From Coprobacter sp. (GTDB lineage Bacteria > Bacteroidota > Bacteroidia > Bacteroidales > UBA11471), in the NCBI GenBank assembly GCA_017462265.1, contig JAFTRN010000039.1:1-64000 (forward strand): a DNA stretch of 64,000 bases, written 5' to 3'. The position numbers and the translations under genes were made by a program. Under the pieces are notes generated by a model that was given only the letters and a program-made list of their open reading frames with translations, did not search any database and was not told where the DNA came from. This document shows, piece by piece, positions 15,079-46,992 of this stretch. Positions within the stretch are counted from its first letter, which is position 1; each line of letters begins with the position of its first letter.

Positions 15079-15866
15079 ATCGCGAGATAAAACGCATCGT
15101 ATTTATAGGGGCGGGCAATATGGCAACCCGCCTCGCACAAGCGTTGCACAGCGCCGGATATGAGATAGCGCAGGTATATAGCCGCACAGAAACGTCGGCA
15201 CGCAACTTAGCCGAGAAATTAGGGTGCGACTACACCCACGACATAGAGGGTGTGGTGCCCGATGCCGATATGTACATCTTTGCCGTGAGCGACTCGGCTC
15301 TCGAAGGTCTCATAGCCCGCACACCCGCCCGTCACGACGCATTGTGGGTACATACCGCCGGCAGCATGTCTATGGAGGTGTTTTCCGGGCGATGCAACCG
15401 ATATGGCATATTCTACCCTTTACAGACCTTGAGCAAGGATAGAGAGGTCTCATTCGACGAGATACCCGTTTTCATCGAGGCCGATAGTGCCGACGACACC
15501 GAGTTGTTGCGTACCATAGGGCTGAAAATATCGCACCGGGTAATGGTCGCCTCATCGGAGCAACGCAAATACCTGCATCTGGCCGCCGTATTCGCCTGCA
15601 ACTTCACCAATCATATGTATGCCATCGCCACCGGACTGCTCGCCCGTCAAGGGTTGTCGTTCGACGCGCTACGTCCCCTCATCAAAGAGACGGCCTCGAA
15701 GATAGAGACACTGTCTCCCCTCGAGGCGCAGACCGGTCCGGCCGTGCGATACGACGAGAATGTGATGCAGAAACACATCGACTTGCTCGATAGCCCGGCC
15801 GAGAAAGAGTTGTACCGACTGATAAGCCGCCATATTCACACATTTGCCACAAAAGACAAATCATAA
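15072..15866 (+). CDS. Rossmann-fold DUF2520 oxidoreductase-like protein
   Basis: The N-terminal half is an NAD(P)-binding domain of the F420-dependent NADP-oxidoreductase type (FIGAGNMATRLAQALHSAG near the start); the C-terminal half is the helical DUF2520 domain, related to ketopantoate/pyrroline-carboxylate reductases. The reaction is not established. The start at 15072 is chosen because it overlaps the upstream stop and the Rossmann motif follows within ten residues. The cluster order nitroreductase, DUF2520, KdsC, Maf is common in Bacteroidales. A 195-bp repeat element separates it from kdsC and begins at its stop codon. Confidence 0.85.
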   Translation: MVNREIKRIVFIGAGNMATRLAQALHSAGYEIAQVYSRTETSARNLAEKLGCDYTHDIEGVVPDADMYIFAVSDSALEGLIARTPARHDALWVHTAGSMSMEVFSGRCNRYGIFYPLQTLSKDREVSFDEIPVFIEADSADDTELLRTIGLKISHRVMVASSEQRKYLHLAAVFACNFTNHMYAIATGLLARQGLSFDALRPLIKETASKIETLSPLEAQTGPAVRYDENVMQKHIDLLDSPAEKELYRLISRHIHTFATKDKS

Positions 15867-16061
15867 GATGCTGTTTAAAATTTTCTTGAAAAAATTATTA
15901 TGGCTTCAAAAAACAAAGTTTCGGATTCTTTAAGGCCCTTTTGGTTGCCTTTTTCACCAAATAGCTTGGACGTAGCCCGCTACGTCCTACGCAATTTGTC
16001 GAAAAATTCATTCCAAAATATCCCTTAAAATAATCTCGACAATAAAATTTAAACAGCATCT
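15867..16061 (+). repeat. Dispersed inverted-repeat element, 195-bp copy
   Basis: The ends AGATGCTGTTTAAA and TTTAAACAGCATCT are a perfect 14-bp inverted pair. The interior holds a perfect 9-bp hairpin (GGACGTAGC at 15968-15976, GCTACGTCC at 15979-15987). Compared with the 263-bp copies it lacks the 63-bp palindrome near the right end. It fills the space from the DUF2520 stop to 4 bp before the kdsC start. Confidence 0.85.
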
Positions 16062-23131: not shown

Positions 23132-23221
23132 TAAATACACCCTATCACCCCCGAATTATTGCCTTTTCATCGGGAAATTTGGTCACGTCAAAAAAAAATT
23201 GTAATATAGCACCTTGAAATA

Positions 23222-23484
23222 AGAAGCTGTTTTAATTTTCTAAAAAAATTATTACGGCTTCAAAAAAAACGTTTCGGCTTCTTTAAGGCTCTTTTGGCTG
23301 CCTTTTTCATCAAAAAACTTGGAAATAGCCCGCTATTCCCTGCGCATTTTGATGAAAAATTCATTCCAAAATACCTCTTAAAATAATCTCGAAAGATAGT
23401 GCCAACGAGCGCAATGTAAACTTGTTTACAAATTGCACAGCGAGTGCAGCCTATCTTCTGCAAAATAAAATTCAAACAACTTCT
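23222..23484 (+). repeat. Dispersed inverted-repeat element, 263-bp copy B
   Basis: It runs from AGAAGCTGTTTTAATTTT to AAATTCAAACAACTTCT. Inside are a hairpin (GGAAATAGC at 23321-23329, GCTATTCC at 23332-23339) and a 63-bp near-palindrome (23394-23456) centred on TGTAAACTTGTTTACA. The 63 bp are identical to the copy at 46758-46820. It occupies most of the rho-HU spacer; the rest of 23132-23527 holds no gene. Confidence 0.85.
23394..23456. repeat. 63-bp near-palindrome, identical in both long elements
   Basis: It begins AGATAG and ends CTATCT, with arms around a TGTAAACTTGTTTACA core. Its reverse complement is found base for base at 46758-46820, although the surrounding element copies have diverged. 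Confidence 0.85.
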
Positions 23485-23527
23485 AAAAGACTGTTATAAA
23501 TCAGCCTCAAGAAAAAACGCACAGATA

Positions 23528-23815
23528 GTGGAACACAAACAATTCTTTGCAACCTTACAAGAGCATCTCGGCAAGGACAAAAAAGAGGTCGATAACCTCT
23601 ACTCGGGCTTGTTGCAGATTATCAAAGAGCGTAGCCTGTCGATGGATTCCATATCGATACAAGGCTTCGGTGTATTCGAGCCGCGCAAGAAGCTCGAACG
23701 AGTAACCGTCAATCCGGCTACGGGTAAACGTATGCTTATCCCGCCCCGTATCGTGCTCACATTCAAGCCGGGAGCCGTACTGAAAAGTCGTATCAAAGAA
23801 AATCCCGCCCAATGA
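23528..23815 (+). CDS. HU-family DNA-binding protein
   Basis: A 95-residue HU/IHF-fold protein expected to bend and compact DNA as a dimer. The GTG at 23528 is taken as start because it gives the normal HU N-terminus (EHKQFFATLQEHLG), whereas the only in-frame ATG (23444) lies inside the upstream palindrome. Family features are the helical dimerisation half, GFGVFEPRKKLERV, and the DNA-arm with NPATGKRMLIPP; the arm proline is present. Its stop overlaps the start of the next HU-domain gene by 4 bp, so the two HU proteins are made together and could heterodimerise. Confidence 0.85.
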   Translation: MEHKQFFATLQEHLGKDKKEVDNLYSGLLQIIKERSLSMDSISIQGFGVFEPRKKLERVTVNPATGKRMLIPPRIVLTFKPGAVLKSRIKENPAQ

Positions 23816-25305
23816 ATACCAAGATAACACAACCCGAACTCATCGAGCTCCTGAGCAAGAAATGCGATTGCACCAAGAGAGAGGCCGAGCAATTCCTGAA
23901 AGAATTTTTCGCCTTGGCCGCCGACACCGTCGCACAAGGCGAGAATCTGAAAATCAACGGGCTGGGACAATTTCGCTCTATCTGGGTGGAACCTCGGGCC
24001 AGTGTGAACGTGCGCACCGGCGAGCCGATGGAAATAGCCGGGCACTACAAACTTTCGTTCGCCCCCGACAAGGCTATGCGCGAGGCGGTAAACGCCCCCT
24101 TCTCCTGTTTCATACCCGAGGTATTGCCCGATGATGCCATTATCGACGATATATCGACCGTCGATAACGACAATACCGACGACACAGAAAAAGACGAGAT
24201 TATAGACACCGCGACACAGCCCGAAAGCACTTCGCAGAAAGAACTTACACTCGTAGAGGCTCCCCTCCCCGCACCGGAAAATGTACCGCAAGAGGAAACC
24301 CCTCAACCCGTATCGGAAGAGGAGAATACGTCTGAAAAAGAAATCTACACGACCGAAACAGCCTCAGCAACGACTACCGAAGAGGTAACAAATGAAGCGG
24401 TAGATGAAAACACTCCCCCCCTCACCGAGACGCAACTCGACGAGCTTGCCGACTTTGTATTGCAAGAATTGATAGCCAATGCTCAGACCGAAGCAGAGAT
24501 GTCGGCAACCCCAAACGAAGAGACACCCACCGATACCACAGAGCCTACGCCTACCGACAGCCCCTCAAAGGAGCCTCAACCCGAGATCATAAACCTACCG
24601 GAAACCGGAGACACTGACTCCGCCGACATTCCTTCCGAAGTAGTGTTTTTGGTCGATGAAGAAACTCTGTGGCAGAAGATATGCCGTCGTCCGATTTTAT
24701 CGACAATATGCGCCATAACGTTAGCGGCAGTCGTATTTATCGGCGTCACCCTCTATCGCTCGCCCGAATGGCGCGCTCAGTATGCCGAGATATGGAGCGA
24801 GCGTATAGCCGCTCTTGTAACCGCAAGCGATGACAGCCCCCGACAAACCTCTGCAGACCTCACCACCGACGCACAAGCTCCTACACAAAATGAAATACCC
24901 GCCCCGGCAGAAAACGCCAAAGCAGAGCAACTCCACGCTACCAATACCGGCAGAGAGAACAATTCGGTCGAAAAGATTGTTCCTGTAGAGAAGTCGTCGC
25001 CCGAGCCCACAGAGCAAACCGTGACACCCCGGCCCGACGTTACCACATTGCCACCTATCGCCACCGTGAAATTGGAACGGGGTAAACGCCTCACCTTGCT
25101 GGCATTGGAATATTATGGCGATAAAGTTTTCTGGGTATATATCTACGAGGAAAACAGAAATCGCATCTCCAATCCCAACAATATACCCATCGGGTTCAGT
25201 CTGAATATACCCGATGCTCGCAAGTATGGTATCGACGCCAACGATAAAGCCTCGATAGACCGCGCAAACAAGTTGGCCGACGAACTGAAAAAGAGATACA
25301 AATAA
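23812..25305 (+). CDS. HU-domain membrane protein with periplasmic LysM domain
   Basis: Residues 1-95 are an HU/IHF-type DNA-binding domain (helical half, then INGLGQFRSIWVEPRASVN and an arm with VRTGEPMEIA). About 96-285 is an acidic, Pro/Thr-rich linker. CRRP precedes one membrane helix (about 296-315), which predicts the HU domain in the cytoplasm. A second linker (about 320-415) leads to a C-terminal LysM-like domain (about 417-470; LLALEYYGDKVFWVYIYEENR and IPIGFSLNIP), which usually binds peptidoglycan. The protein therefore appears built to connect DNA with the cell wall. The domains are visible; the tethering role is inference. It overlaps the upstream HU gene by 4 bp. Confidence 0.88.
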   Translation: MNTKITQPELIELLSKKCDCTKREAEQFLKEFFALAADTVAQGENLKINGLGQFRSIWVEPRASVNVRTGEPMEIAGHYKLSFAPDKAMREAVNAPFSCFIPEVLPDDAIIDDISTVDNDNTDDTEKDEIIDTATQPESTSQKELTLVEAPLPAPENVPQEETPQPVSEEENTSEKEIYTTETASATTTEEVTNEAVDENTPPLTETQLDELADFVLQELIANAQTEAEMSATPNEETPTDTTEPTPTDSPSKEPQPEIINLPETGDTDSADIPSEVVFLVDEETLWQKICRRPILSTICAITLAAVVFIGVTLYRSPEWRAQYAEIWSERIAALVTASDDSPRQTSADLTTDAQAPTQNEIPAPAENAKAEQLHATNTGRENNSVEKIVPVEKSSPEPTEQTVTPRPDVTTLPPIATVKLERGKRLTLLALEYYGDKVFWVYIYEENRNRISNPNNIPIGFSLNIPDARKYGIDANDKASIDRANKLADELKKRYK

Positions 25306-25308
25306 ATA

Positions 25309-25358
25309 AGAAGCTGATTTTTCATAAAACGCATTATAGTTTCAAAAAAACAACTTCT
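25309..25358 (+). repeat. Short derivative of the dispersed element (50 bp)
   Basis: AGAAGCTGATTTTT to AAAAACAACTTCT with a shortened interior. It begins 3 bp after the HU-LysM stop codon. Confidence 0.6.
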
Positions 25359-25426
25359 TAAAAATTTTTATGGAATGATTTCGTTAATTTAACGCTTCAA
25401 ACATTAAACACAGTCGGAATCATTCC

Positions 25427-25480: not shown

Positions 25481-26476
25481 ATGGGACAGACAGTGGACAT
25501 TCGAGAACTTAACGAACTGATAGCAAGTAAAAGTTCATTTGTCAATATGCTTACCATGGGTATGGATCAAGTGATAGTCGGTCAGAAACACCTCATCGAC
25601 TCACTGATGATAGGCCTCCTCTCCAACGGACACATACTGCTCGAGGGTGTACCCGGATTGGCAAAAACATTGGCAATAAAGACATTGGCATCTCTCATCG
25701 ACGCCAAATACAGCCGTATTCAATTTACCCCCGACCTGCTCCCCGCCGACGTGGTGGGTACCATGGTGTATAGCCAGGCCAAAGAGCAGTTTCAAGTGAA
25801 AAAAGGTCCGGTATTTGCCAATTTCGTATTGGCCGATGAGATAAACCGTGCCCCCGCCAAGGTGCAAAGTGCCTTGCTCGAAGCGATGCAAGAGCGCCAA
25901 GTAACTATCGGCGAAAACACCTACAAGCTCGATGAGCCCTTCTTGGTAATGGCTACCCAGAACCCCATAGAGCAAGAAGGTACCTATCCCCTTCCCGAAG
26001 CCCAAGTGGACCGTTTCTTGCTCAAAGTCATCATCAACTATCCCAAGAAAGAGGAAGAAAAGCTCATCATACGCCAGAACATTGCCGGTACCCGTCCCGA
26101 GATAAAACCGGTACTCAAGACCGAAGACATCATCGAAGCACGTAAAATCGTGCAACAAGTATATCTCGACGAGAAAATCGAACGTTATATCGTGGATATA
26201 GTCTTTGCCACCCGTTATCCGCAAGATCACGGTCTCGAAGAGTTGAAAAACATGATTGCGTTCGGAGCCTCACCCCGTGCCTCCATCAATCTGGCCTTGG
26301 CTGCCCGCTCTTACGCCTTCTTGAAACAACGCGGCTATGTAGTGCCCGAGGACGTGCGCGCCGTGTGCCACGACGTGATGCGTCACCGCATAGGTCTCAC
26401 CTACGAAGCCGAAGCCAACAACATCACAGCCGAGGAAATCGTAAGCGAAATACTCAACAAAGTAGAAGTGCCTTAG
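25481..26476 (+). CDS. MoxR-family AAA+ ATPase
   Basis: Chaperone-like AAA+ ATPase thought to load or mature the VWA proteins encoded downstream. Walker A is GVPGLAKT (56-63), Walker B is LADEINRAP and sensor 1 is in ATQNPIEQEGTYPLPEAQ. The 331-residue length is typical. It is the first gene of the aerotolerance operon, with 29 bp to the DUF58 gene. Confidence 0.95.
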   Translation: MGQTVDIRELNELIASKSSFVNMLTMGMDQVIVGQKHLIDSLMIGLLSNGHILLEGVPGLAKTLAIKTLASLIDAKYSRIQFTPDLLPADVVGTMVYSQAKEQFQVKKGPVFANFVLADEINRAPAKVQSALLEAMQERQVTIGENTYKLDEPFLVMATQNPIEQEGTYPLPEAQVDRFLLKVIINYPKKEEEKLIIRQNIAGTRPEIKPVLKTEDIIEARKIVQQVYLDEKIERYIVDIVFATRYPQDHGLEELKNMIAFGASPRASINLALAARSYAFLKQRGYVVPEDVRAVCHDVMRHRIGLTYEAEANNITAEEIVSEILNKVEVP

Positions 26477-26505
26477 TGCTATAACGCCCTGTAACCAATA
26501 AGCGT

Positions 26506-27375
26506 ATGGAAACTTCCGAGTTACTAAAAAAAGTCCGTAGGATAGAAATAAAGACTCGCGGATTGTCGCGCAATATCTTTGCGGGACAGTACCATTCGGC
26601 CTTTAAGGGGCGGGGTATGGCCTTTTCCGAGGTAAGGGAGTATCAGTTTGGCGACGATGTGCGTGACATCGATTGGAACGTAACAGCCCGCCACCGCAAG
26701 CCCTACATCAAGGTATTCGAGGAGGAACGTGAAATGACCGTTATGTTGCTGGTCGATGTATCGGCCAGTCGCAATTTCGGTGCCGTGGGAGAAATGAAAA
26801 AAGAGATGATTACCGAAATCGCCGCCACACTGGCCTTTTCGACCATACAAAACAACGATAAAATCGGTGTTATCTTCTTTTCCGACCGTATAGAAAAATT
26901 CATTCCACCCCAAAAAGGCAAAAAACATGTATTGTATATCATTCGTGAGTTGATCGACTTCACCCCCTCACATACAGGCACATCGCTGTCGCAAGTGTTG
27001 CAATACCTCACAAATGCCATAAAGAAACGGTGCACCACCTTCCTCATATCCGATTTCATAACCCCCGAGGACTTCTCCAACGCGCTGACCATAGCCAACC
27101 GCAAACACGACGTGGTGGCCGTGCAAGTATATGACAAGCGCGAGACAGAATTACCCAACGTGGGACTTATAAAGTTGCGTGACGCCGAACGAGGTACCGA
27201 CGTGTGGGTTGATGCCTCATCGCGACGAGTGCGCGAACGTTACGCCGCATGGTGGAACGAACGCCAACAACATACCGAGGAGGCTTTGCGCAAAAGCCGT
27301 GTAGATATGGCCTCAATAGCTACCGATGAAGACTTTGTCGTTGCCTTGATGAACCTATTCAAGCGAAGGGCCTAA
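26506..27375 (+). CDS. DUF58 domain protein (VWA-like)
   Basis: Partner of MoxR ATPases in Bat-type operons. The DUF58 hallmark at about 44-65 (YQFGDDVRDIDWNVTARH) is intact. The following VWA-like fold has a MIDAS-type DVSASRNFG near residue 84. It is cytoplasmic, with no signal or membrane segment. Gene order and spacing place it between moxR and the BatD-like gene. Confidence 0.93.
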   Translation: METSELLKKVRRIEIKTRGLSRNIFAGQYHSAFKGRGMAFSEVREYQFGDDVRDIDWNVTARHRKPYIKVFEEEREMTVMLLVDVSASRNFGAVGEMKKEMITEIAATLAFSTIQNNDKIGVIFFSDRIEKFIPPQKGKKHVLYIIRELIDFTPSHTGTSLSQVLQYLTNAIKKRCTTFLISDFITPEDFSNALTIANRKHDVVAVQVYDKRETELPNVGLIKLRDAERGTDVWVDASSRRVRERYAAWWNERQQHTEEALRKSRVDMASIATDEDFVVALMNLFKRRA

Positions 27376-27457
27376 CCACAACGTCGGTCGGAACAGAAGC
27401 CGTCTTAAAATTCAGCACGACTTCACCCTAATCAAATTTCTGTGAAAAAGGAAAAAG

Positions 27458-28555
27458 ATGAAACGTATCAAACATAAATTCACACCGATTTATCTGTTGG
27501 CCGTATTGGTAGTTTCGCTACTGCCTATACGGCAAGCTGTCGCAGCCGACATATCGGTTCATGCCACTATCGACTCCACCGCTCTGTGGATGGGCGAGCA
27601 GACGCGCATAAGACTGGAATTGGCTCAAAACGATGGTGAAAAAGTGTGGTTATTACCTACTTTCTCTGACACGTTGGTGACCGGCATCGAGGTACTCGAG
27701 GTATCCCGACCCGACACTACCCGCCTGGCCAATAACCGATTGCAGATAGACCGTTCTATACTCATCACCTCTTTCGACTCGGGATTCTTCTATATTCCGC
27801 CGTTCCGATACTTGGCCGGCGACGACACCATCGACACCGAGGCCCTCAGTATAAAAATACTCCCAATGGAGGTCGATACCAGCAAATCGATTGTAGATAT
27901 AAAAGGTGTACGCGCGCCATCGTCGGCTTGGTGGTTGCGATTGTGGGACAATATGCCCCTATGGGCATGGTATCTGTTGGCCGGGCTGATAGGTGCCGCC
28001 ATACTTGCAGCGGTATTATACTATATATATAAAAAGAAACAACGCAACAATGGCGAAAAAATAGCCCCCGAAGACCTCCTGCCTCCGCACGAAAAGGCAC
28101 TATTAGCACTCACGCAACTGCGCGAGGAGAAATTGTGGCAAGAGGGGCGCGAGAAAGAATATTACACACACCTCACCGACATATTACGCGAATATCTCGA
28201 AGGTCGTTTCGGCATACAGGCCATGGAGATGACCTCTTCGCAAATATTAGACTGTATGCGAGCCGACAAAGAGACAAAAGCGCTCAACAAGCAGATGAAA
28301 GAGATACTCGAAATGGCCGACTTTGTGAAGTTTGCCAAGATGCGCCCGATGCCCGAGGACAATGAAGCCGCCATGAGAAAAGCCGTAAATTTCGTGGAGG
28401 ATACCCGCCCCGTAGAGGTCGCCGAGCCCGAGAAATCGTCCGACGACACCCCGACGGTTACTGATGCCACGGTCATAGCTCCGACAGCTGAGACGAGCAA
28501 GGACGCTGATAATGATTTTGAAAAATACGGACCTTCAAATAAGAACAGACTATGA
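27458..28555 (+). CDS. BatD-like membrane protein with single span
   Basis: A signal peptide (1-29, ending AVAA) leads a periplasmic beta domain (about 30-160). One membrane helix follows (about 170-190), then a cytoplasmic helical part with EYYTHLTDILREYLEGRFG, a motif shared with the cytoplasmic tail of BatD. A disordered acidic tail ends the protein. This arrangement matches the short BatD/DUF4381-like protein found between DUF58 and batA in Bacteroides. Its stop overlaps the batA start by 4 bp. Confidence 0.82.
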   Translation: MKRIKHKFTPIYLLAVLVVSLLPIRQAVAADISVHATIDSTALWMGEQTRIRLELAQNDGEKVWLLPTFSDTLVTGIEVLEVSRPDTTRLANNRLQIDRSILITSFDSGFFYIPPFRYLAGDDTIDTEALSIKILPMEVDTSKSIVDIKGVRAPSSAWWLRLWDNMPLWAWYLLAGLIGAAILAAVLYYIYKKKQRNNGEKIAPEDLLPPHEKALLALTQLREEKLWQEGREKEYYTHLTDILREYLEGRFGIQAMEMTSSQILDCMRADKETKALNKQMKEILEMADFVKFAKMRPMPEDNEAAMRKAVNFVEDTRPVEVAEPEKSSDDTPTVTDATVIAPTAETSKDADNDFEKYGPSNKNRL

Positions 28556-29535
28556 GTTTTGCCCACCCCTCCTATTTATGGCTGTTTCTGCTCTTTGTCC
28601 CGACTATTGTGTGGTATATACTCAAGCACAAAAAAGCCGAGGCGACTTTGCAGGTATCATCGACGTATGCGTTCGACCGTATAGGTAACAGTTATAAAAA
28701 ATATTTGCGCCATCTGCTTTTCGTATTGAGATTGGTGACCATAGGTTGCTTGATAATAGTCCTGGCTCGACCGCAGTCATCGAATAATTGGAGCAAACAA
28801 TCTACCGAAGGTATCGATATAATACTCACGCTCGACATATCTACGAGTATGTGGGCGCGCGATTTCGACCCCAACCGTATAGAGGCGGCCAAGAATGTAG
28901 CGGCACAATTCATTTCGGGCCGCACAACCGACAACATAGGTTTGGTAATTTTTGCCGGTGAAAGTTTCACTCTATGTCCCATGACTACCGACCGCACGGT
29001 GTTGCTCAATATGCTGCGTGAGGTACATTGCGGCATGATAGAAGACCGCACGGCCATAGGCGACGGACTGGCCACGGCTGTGAGCCGTATAAAAGATGGA
29101 CCTGCCAAGTCTAAAACCATCATACTGCTTACCGATGGAACGAACAATGCCGGAGATATTTCGCCCGAGACCGCAGCACAAATCGCCCAAACGTTCGGCA
29201 TACGCGTTTACACCATCGGTGTGGGTACAAGAGGCGAAGCCCCCTATCCCCACCAGACACCTTATGGTATAGAATATCGCCCCGTGAAGGTGGAAATAGA
29301 CGAGGCCTCACTACAAGCCATCGCCAATACCACCGGAGGTAAGTACTTCCGTGCCACCGACAAAAATGTATTGAAAGATGTCTTTACCGAAATAGATAAG
29401 TTGGAAAAGACCAAATTGGTCGTGAAAGAGTTCAGCACCAAAGAGGAATTGTACCTTTCTTGGGGCATAGTGGCTCTGCTGTCGTTGCTCGCCGAGATAC
29501 TCTTACGTCGCACCCTATTACGTAACATTCCTTAA
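28552..29535 (+). CDS. batA: BatA, membrane-anchored VWA protein
   Basis: Aerotolerance protein. A helix at residues 7-22 and another at about 62-80 precede a VWA domain with an intact MIDAS DISTS (Asp about 94); a further helix at about 303-322 anchors the C-terminus. VWA domains bind protein partners through Mg. It overlaps the upstream gene by 4 bp and lies 11 bp before batB, which encodes a similar protein. Confidence 0.93.
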   Translation: MSFAHPSYLWLFLLFVPTIVWYILKHKKAEATLQVSSTYAFDRIGNSYKKYLRHLLFVLRLVTIGCLIIVLARPQSSNNWSKQSTEGIDIILTLDISTSMWARDFDPNRIEAAKNVAAQFISGRTTDNIGLVIFAGESFTLCPMTTDRTVLLNMLREVHCGMIEDRTAIGDGLATAVSRIKDGPAKSKTIILLTDGTNNAGDISPETAAQIAQTFGIRVYTIGVGTRGEAPYPHQTPYGIEYRPVKVEIDEASLQAIANTTGGKYFRATDKNVLKDVFTEIDKLEKTKLVVKEFSTKEELYLSWGIVALLSLLAEILLRRTLLRNIP

Positions 29536-46724: not shown

Positions 46725-46729
46725 AATTC

Positions 46730-46992
46730 AGAAGTTGTTTGAATTTTATTTTGCAGAAGATAGGCTGCACTCGCTGTGCAATTTGTAAACAAGTTTACAT
46801 TGCGCTCGTTGGCACTATCTTTCGAGATTATTTAAGAGGAATTTTGGAATGGATTTTTCATCAAAATGCGCAGGTCGTAGCGGGCTACGTCCAAGCGGGT
46901 TGATGGAAAAGAGGACCAAAAGAACCTTAAAGAATCCGAAACTTTTTTTGAAGCTATGTTTAAATTTTTTAATAAAATTCAAGACAGCTTCT
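46730..46992 (-). repeat. Dispersed inverted-repeat element, 263-bp copy C
   Basis: Opposite orientation to copy B and the same length. Read on the minus strand it runs from AGAAGCTGTCTTGAATTTTA to AATTCAAACAACTTCT and contains the GGACGTAGC/GCTACGACC hairpin (plus-strand 46873-46892) and the 63-bp near-palindrome (46758-46820). It fills most of 46725-47143; nothing else is recognised there apart from a promoter box at 47006. Confidence 0.85.
46758..46820. repeat. 63-bp near-palindrome, second copy
   Basis: Exact reverse complement of 23394-23456. Confidence 0.85.

What the first reader, a model, noticed from the sequence alone, without database searches (positions are those of the whole stretch)
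23812..25305. HU-type DNA-binding domain fused through a membrane helix to a LysM domain: candidate chromosome-to-cell-wall tether
Seen: an HU/IHF fold (1-95), an acidic linker, one hydrophobic helix (about 296-315) preceded by CRRP (positive inside), and a LysM-like domain (about 417-470). Known: HU binds DNA, LysM binds peptidoglycan. Inference: the DNA-binding end is cytoplasmic and the LysM end periplasmic, so one polypeptide could link nucleoid and wall. It is translationally coupled to a soluble HU, which could heterodimerise with it. I know of no described system of this form.
Basis: partly seen in the sequence, partly recalled or inferred. Interest (0 to 1): 0.75.

Follow-up and report, generated by a model that had tools for sequence, protein, structure and literature searches.

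The report
Membrane HU–LysM protein with HU partner
Many gut and oral Bacteroidales carry a pair of adjacent genes that appears to make a two-part DNA-binding head anchored through the inner membrane to a cell-wall-type domain; this could tie the chromosome to the envelope, but several lineages have lost the DNA-gripping arms, so that cannot be its only job everywhere.

Summary
The 497-aa protein (23812-25305) has an HU fold (1-97), an acidic linker, one transmembrane helix (about 294-316), a second linker, a LysM fold (417-468) and a C-terminal helix. Homologs occur across Bacteroidales and in one family (f59) of another class of the phylum.

A small HU gene lies directly upstream in 79 of 87 Bacteroidales homologs and 7 of 7 f59 loci. 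In the other 8 (Porphyromonas group) the two HU domains are fused in one chain, and a further fusion occurs in family f31. When the membrane HU keeps its DNA-gripping arms, the partner keeps its ER motif (70 of 71); when the arms are lost, the partner has usually lost it too (15 of 16). Arms were lost at least four times. Together these point to an HU heterodimer.

Topology (N-in, C-out) is well supported. DNA binding is likely in the window's lineage but not universal. Wall binding is not shown: the LysM most resembles those of cytoplasmic Kbp and phage baseplates.

Best reading: an inner-membrane HU heterodimer tethering DNA to the envelope, paralleling HU-CCDC81–membrane–SPOR-like proteins. 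I found no description in the open literature searched.

The parts
23528..23815 (+). small soluble HU/IHF-like subunit (95 aa, GTG start), presumed partner of the membrane subunit; tip motif NPATG kept, net charge +8
   Evidence: Pfam PF00216 2.6e-19; start inferred from relatives; charge and tip
23812..25305 (+). membrane subunit: HU - acidic linker - TM - linker - LysM - C-terminal helix (497 aa)
23812..24102 (+). HU/IHF domain (aa 1-97); arm tip VNVRTG, i.e. the intercalating Pro replaced by Val
   Evidence: Pfam 6-94, 1.9e-19; AlphaFold and Foldseek; tip Val/Ile in 70 of 71
24103..24690 (+). acidic, mostly disordered cytoplasmic linker (aa 98-293) with a conserved NxPFxxF segment at its start and a predicted helix at aa 206-226
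   Evidence: family median length 160 aa, about -20 net charge per 100 residues
24691..24759 (+). single transmembrane helix (aa 294-316), preceded by RR
24760..25059 (+). periplasmic linker (aa 317-416)
   Evidence: family median 66 aa from TM to LysM
25060..25209 (+). LysM domain (aa 417-466), FWVYIYEEN signature
25210..25302 (+). conserved C-terminal extension (KYGIDAxDxxS + helix, aa 467-497)
25481..29535 (+). downstream MoxR ATPase - DUF58 - BatD-like - VWA genes; neighbours, not shown to be functional parts
   Evidence: MoxR is the next gene downstream on the same strand in 36 of 86 loci and within two genes in 38; same order in Bacteroides finegoldii

Best explanation
The two genes encode one complex: an HU/IHF-type heterodimer in which one subunit is soluble (23528-23815) and the other is anchored in the inner membrane (23812-25305). 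The HU head grips DNA in the cytoplasm, mainly through the partner's arm, which keeps the intercalating proline. The acidic linker holds the DNA away from the membrane. The single TM and the periplasmic linker place a LysM plus C-terminal helix in the periplasm, where it binds peptidoglycan or a wall-associated protein. The complex would thus fix DNA to the envelope. In some lineages (Porphyromonas, several Muribaculaceae and others) the head has degenerated and the complex has become a membrane scaffold without HU-style DNA binding. Shown by computation: folds, one TM, conserved pairing, fusions, co-degeneration. Inferred: heterodimerisation itself, DNA binding, wall binding, tethering.
For: HU and LysM folds. 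One TM with positive-inside bias. Separate small HU directly upstream in 79 loci (42 overlapping, 76 within 30 nt) and in all 7 loci tested of another class. Natural HU-HU fusions in Porphyromonas and, apparently separately, in family f31 (L159). Partner tip Pro 70/71 and ER 70/71 when membrane arms are present, ER 1/16 when absent. Arm loss at least 4 times and partner ER loss 4 times on the tree, with 3 of 4 independent pairs changing together. In f59 and in L158 both HU arms keep NP, suggesting ancestral DNA binding. A related LysM + KYGID extension sits on an OmpA/beta-barrel protein, which fits a periplasmic module.
Against: No binding data. The membrane HU is near neutral and lacks the tip proline. 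16 of 87 members lack arms. Closest solved LysMs are not wall-binders. The C-terminal LysM extension implies more than a simple wall anchor, and Bacteroides finegoldii lacks it. Independent co-change events are only 3 of 4, too few for significance. Patchy: about 11 of 60 genomes sampled from different families of the order (my count). The two HU subunits could also pair with other HUs in the cell.
Confidence: 0.5

Rival explanations
1. Protein scaffold: the HU heterodimer is a membrane-proximal protein-protein interaction module (as HU folds are in CCDC81), and the complex organises envelope machinery without binding DNA; DNA binding is ancestral and dispensable.
For: Arms and basic residues lost repeatedly while TM and LysM are kept. 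Best Foldseek hits of the fused double-HU model are chains of doublet-microtubule entries, which I recall to include CCDC81. Conserved non-HU segment after the HU fold. Next to the MoxR-Bat envelope/stress genes in many genomes.
Against: In 71 of 87 members the arms are kept, with highly conserved R62, T69 and G70 and a basic partner that keeps the tip Pro in 70 of 71, as expected if DNA is bound. Gene order next to moxR is not universal.
Confidence: 0.27
2. One-component membrane transcription regulator or envelope sensor: LysM senses wall state and the HU heterodimer acts on a few promoters, for example its own operon or the moxR-bat genes.
For: Topology is that of a one-component sensor; both subunits score best with IHF-alpha among curated models, and IHF is a regulator; frequently upstream of moxR-DUF58-bat.
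Against: HU/IHF domains usually bind with low specificity; half of the loci lack moxR next door; armless lineages keep the gene.
Confidence: 0.13
3. Potassium sensor like Kbp, by virtue of its Kbp-type LysM.
For: Best solved relative of the LysM is E. coli Kbp (1.4e-9).
Against: The K+ site of Kbp lies in its BON domain (PMC9481166), and no BON domain is reported here; the LysM is on the other side of the membrane.
Confidence: 0.02

Closest known systems
HU-CCDC81_bac proteins (PF18174 + PF18175) with TM and SPOR-like end, Bacteroidota
   Same: two HU domains, the second armless in sequence, then one hydrophobic segment and a C-terminal envelope-type domain; present in the window's own genome (L105), and its first HU domain found in 52 of 60 genomes of the order
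   Different: both HU domains in one chain by default; different HU subfamilies; SPOR-like (by eye only, no Pfam or NCBIfam hit) rather than LysM; the HU-LysM system has a separate soluble partner in most genomes and usually keeps DNA-binding arms
HU/IHF nucleoid proteins (PF00216)
   Same: fold and family of both HU parts; heterodimer logic as in IHF
   Different: one subunit is membrane-anchored, near neutral and has Val/Ile at the intercalation tip
E. coli Kbp (YgaU) LysM and phage/contractile-baseplate LysM
   Same: closest solved relatives of the LysM part
   Different: no BON domain; here the LysM follows a TM and carries its own C-terminal extension
RodZ (HTH - TM - periplasmic domain), from general knowledge
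   Same: DNA-binding-type fold on the cytoplasmic side of a single TM with a periplasmic part, where the fold serves protein contact
   Different: different folds and no HU partner; precedent only, not tested

Membership tests
HU/IHF superfamily (PF00216) | HU fold and Pfam match | tested here: met
   1.9e-19 and 2.6e-19; Foldseek HU/IHF
HU/IHF superfamily (PF00216) | two beta arms with intercalating Pro in the RNPxTG tip | tested here: inconclusive
   Membrane subunit: arm present but tip Pro is Val/Ile in 70 of 71, so not met there. Small partner: tip Pro in 70 of 71, so met there. The tip Pro is typical but not strictly defining for the superfamily.
HU/IHF superfamily (PF00216) | works as a dimer | tested here: inconclusive
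   natural fusions and co-degeneration imply a heterodimer; no complex model could be run
HU/IHF superfamily (PF00216) | DNA binding | not testable with these tools
   needs EMSA or ChIP
LysM (PF01476) | strand-helix-helix-strand LysM fold and profile match | tested here: met
   AlphaFold; family profile against solved LysMs 1.4e-9; hhalign prob 89.7 against LysMs of the own genome; but the single sequence gives no Pfam hit
LysM (PF01476) | peptidoglycan/GlcNAc binding | not testable with these tools
   closest solved relatives are Kbp and baseplate LysMs, which are not known wall-binders (and general knowledge)
HU-CCDC81 tether-type proteins | HU domains of the CCDC81 subfamilies | tested here: not met
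   window protein matches PF00216, not PF18174/PF18175, at E<=1; 15 of 74 relatives hit PF18175 weakly, best 8.5e-6
HU-CCDC81 tether-type proteins | tandem HU + TM + envelope domain architecture | tested here: inconclusive
   reached in Porphyromonas and f31 through fusion; two-gene form elsewhere; LysM instead of SPOR
Kbp potassium-binding protein | BON domain with the K+ site | tested here: not met
   no BON match in the Pfam searches; K+ site in BON (PMC9481166)

The most novel reading that the evidence does not exclude
A dedicated two-subunit chromosome-to-cell-wall tether, found in at least two classes of the phylum, built from a soluble and a membrane-anchored HU. The membrane subunit evolved a non-intercalating arm so that DNA grip depends on the partner, and the device was several times converted into a DNA-free envelope scaffold, paralleling or foreshadowing the CCDC81 type.
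Probability: 0.38. Interest if true: 0.82.

Novelty: new variant of a known kind. Interest (0 to 1): 0.62.

Why it matters
How Bacteroidota attach, position or segregate their chromosomes relative to the envelope is largely unknown (general knowledge). A conserved gene pair that would physically join a nucleoid-type protein to the periplasm gives a concrete, knock-out-ready candidate present in ordinary laboratory genera (Bacteroides, Dysgonomonas, Barnesiella). In public records the membrane member is hidden under the name 'HU family DNA-binding protein'. The repeated paired loss of DNA-binding features is also a natural experiment on how a DNA-binding dimer turns into a structural one.

Tried and rejected
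Potassium-sensor reading (LysM closest to Kbp): rejected because the K+ site lies in the BON domain, which is absent. Idea that f59 (another class) has the membrane protein without the small HU: rejected after a profile search found it in 7 of 7; my notebook entry is wrong on this point. A LysM-only tree for the co-loss test gave too little support (1 starred pair) and was replaced by a 231-column tree without the arm columns. The plasmid hit in Bacteroides finegoldii is a record carrying rpmB, ftsY and rimO, so I do not read it as evidence of mobility. The promoter/terminator scan near the pair was not above shuffles.

Full report
What is there. ORF 23812-25305 encodes 497 residues. Pfam finds an HU/IHF domain at 6-94 (1.9e-19). 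An AlphaFold2 model with 74 homologs shows a confident HU fold (1-97), a disordered acidic linker with one predicted helix (206-226), a helix at 294-316 that is the only hydrophobic segment, a disordered periplasmic linker, a LysM core (417-466) and a further helix (479-496). Foldseek puts the HU part on HU/IHF structures. The LysM is not detected from the single sequence by Pfam. The family profile matches solved LysMs, best E. coli Kbp at 1.4e-9 and phage/contractile-baseplate LysMs, and it matches LysMs of the same genome by profile-profile comparison.

The partner gene. A 95-aa HU (GTG 23528 to 23815) overlaps the start of the membrane gene by 4 nt. Of 87 Bacteroidales homologs with a complete locus, 79 have a separate small HU immediately upstream (42 overlapping, 76 within 30 nt, largest gap 81 nt). 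In the other 8, which form one group of Porphyromonas and relatives, the two HU domains are fused into one protein. A further fusion occurs in family f31 (L159). In a family of another class (f59), all 7 loci examined also have the small HU directly upstream, and the conserved NxPFxxFE-type segment after the HU fold is shared. Bacteroides finegoldii has ftsY-rimO-HU-(HU-TM-LysM)-MoxR-DUF58-BatD-VWA, with both genes annotated only as 'HU family DNA-binding protein'.

Topology. 87 of 89 proteins have exactly one hydrophobic segment. K/R in the 10 residues on the N side average 3.4 against 1.3 on the C side, with N>C in 76 of 89. A single TM puts HU and LysM on opposite sides, and the charge bias puts HU inside. 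A LysM of this type with the KYGID extension also occurs at the end of a protein with OmpA and outer-membrane-barrel matches (L155), which fits a periplasmic module. The median lengths of the two linkers are 160 aa (about -20 net charge per 100 residues) and 66 aa.

DNA-binding features. In armed members the partner is basic (median +8), keeps the tip proline in 70 of 71 and the ER pair in 70 of 71. The membrane HU is near neutral and has Val or Ile at the tip in 70 of 71. In f59 and in L158 of the window's own order, the membrane HU still has NP, so the canonical tip is probably ancestral. In 16 members the membrane arms are gone. In 15 of these the partner has lost the ER pair; the median partner charge in the 16 is -1. 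On a tree built without the arm columns, arm loss needs at least four events on supported branches, partner ER loss needs four, and three of four independent pairs change together. That is consistent and striking, but the number of independent events is too small for a significant sign test, and several long branches make details of the tree uncertain.

Interpretation. The pairing, the fusions and the joint decay are best explained by an HU heterodimer with one subunit in the membrane (my confidence about 0.8; inference from comparative data, no complex model run). In lineages with intact arms, including the window's, DNA binding is likely (about 0.65). What the LysM holds is open: peptidoglycan is plausible (about 0.55), but the nearest solved relatives are not wall-binders, and the conserved FWVYIYEEN and KYGID extension suggest a specific, perhaps proteinaceous, contact. 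A DNA-to-envelope tether is therefore the leading explanation for the armed majority, and a membrane scaffold for the armless lineages.

Comparison with the known. The same genome holds a tandem HU-CCDC81 protein with TM and a SPOR-like end (the SPOR call is by eye, with no Pfam or NCBIfam hit). Its first HU domain was found in 52 of 60 genomes of the order. From memory, Burroughs et al. 2017 proposed a role in chromosome partition for that type; the paper is not held here. The Porphyromonas-type fusion of the present system, with two HUs (the second armless), a TM and an envelope domain, has the same plan, and its model's best Foldseek hits are chains of doublet-microtubule structures, where I recall CCDC81 being found. 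The window protein itself is not a CCDC81 member by profile. I therefore file it as a new variant of a known kind of architecture rather than a categorically new one.

Limits. The open literature library cannot exclude a prior mention. f59 is unnamed. The distribution within the order is patchy: I count about 11 of 60 genomes from different families, and 69 of 295 with the Porphyromonas-type profile, which also picks up some LysM-only hits.

Noticed in passing
window 23217-23488; also 46727-46992 and 15863-16039 in the window: A dispersed repeat of about 270 bp, AT-rich, with roughly inverted ends (AGAAGCTGTTTT ... AAACAACTTCT), sits just upstream of the small HU gene. The genome search returned 58 matches, many 86-96% identical, some full-length and some internally deleted. 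A 57-nt version with both ends lies at 25304-25360 just after the membrane gene. It looks like a MITE-like element.
   Followed up: partly
L155:1753-3438 (G617): OmpA-type outer-membrane protein carrying the same LysM + KYGID extension at its C-terminus (OmpA 3.6e-12, barrel 1.2e-5).
   Followed up: partly
L154:1681-2340 (G684); L156:1498-1956 (G533): Short TM-LysM proteins of this LysM type without an HU domain. In G533 the order is small HU, HU-TM-LysM, TM-LysM.
   Followed up: no
L157:1190-2503 (G631): The membrane protein appears split: small HU, an HU ORF of 147 aa and an overlapping TM-LysM ORF of 217 aa; a frameshift, a sequencing error or a real split.
   Followed up: no
L163:976-1551, L164:1337-1894: Proteins with a Cys-rich zinc-ribbon-like start, a TM and a LysM: another head on a membrane LysM.
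   Followed up: no
L105:1318-2247 (G000:C28): HU-CCDC81 tandem HU + TM + SPOR-like protein in the window's genome.
   Followed up: partly
NZ_OY725888.1 (L168): A 123-kb Bacteroides finegoldii record labelled plasmid carries rpmB, rpmG, ftsY and rimO, so it is probably a chromosomal fragment.
   Followed up: no
Fold search of the L095 fusion, entry 9io5: The double-HU model also matches chains of the Mycoplasma mobile gliding G1-ATPase structure, possibly another HU-fold dimer used structurally.
   Followed up: no
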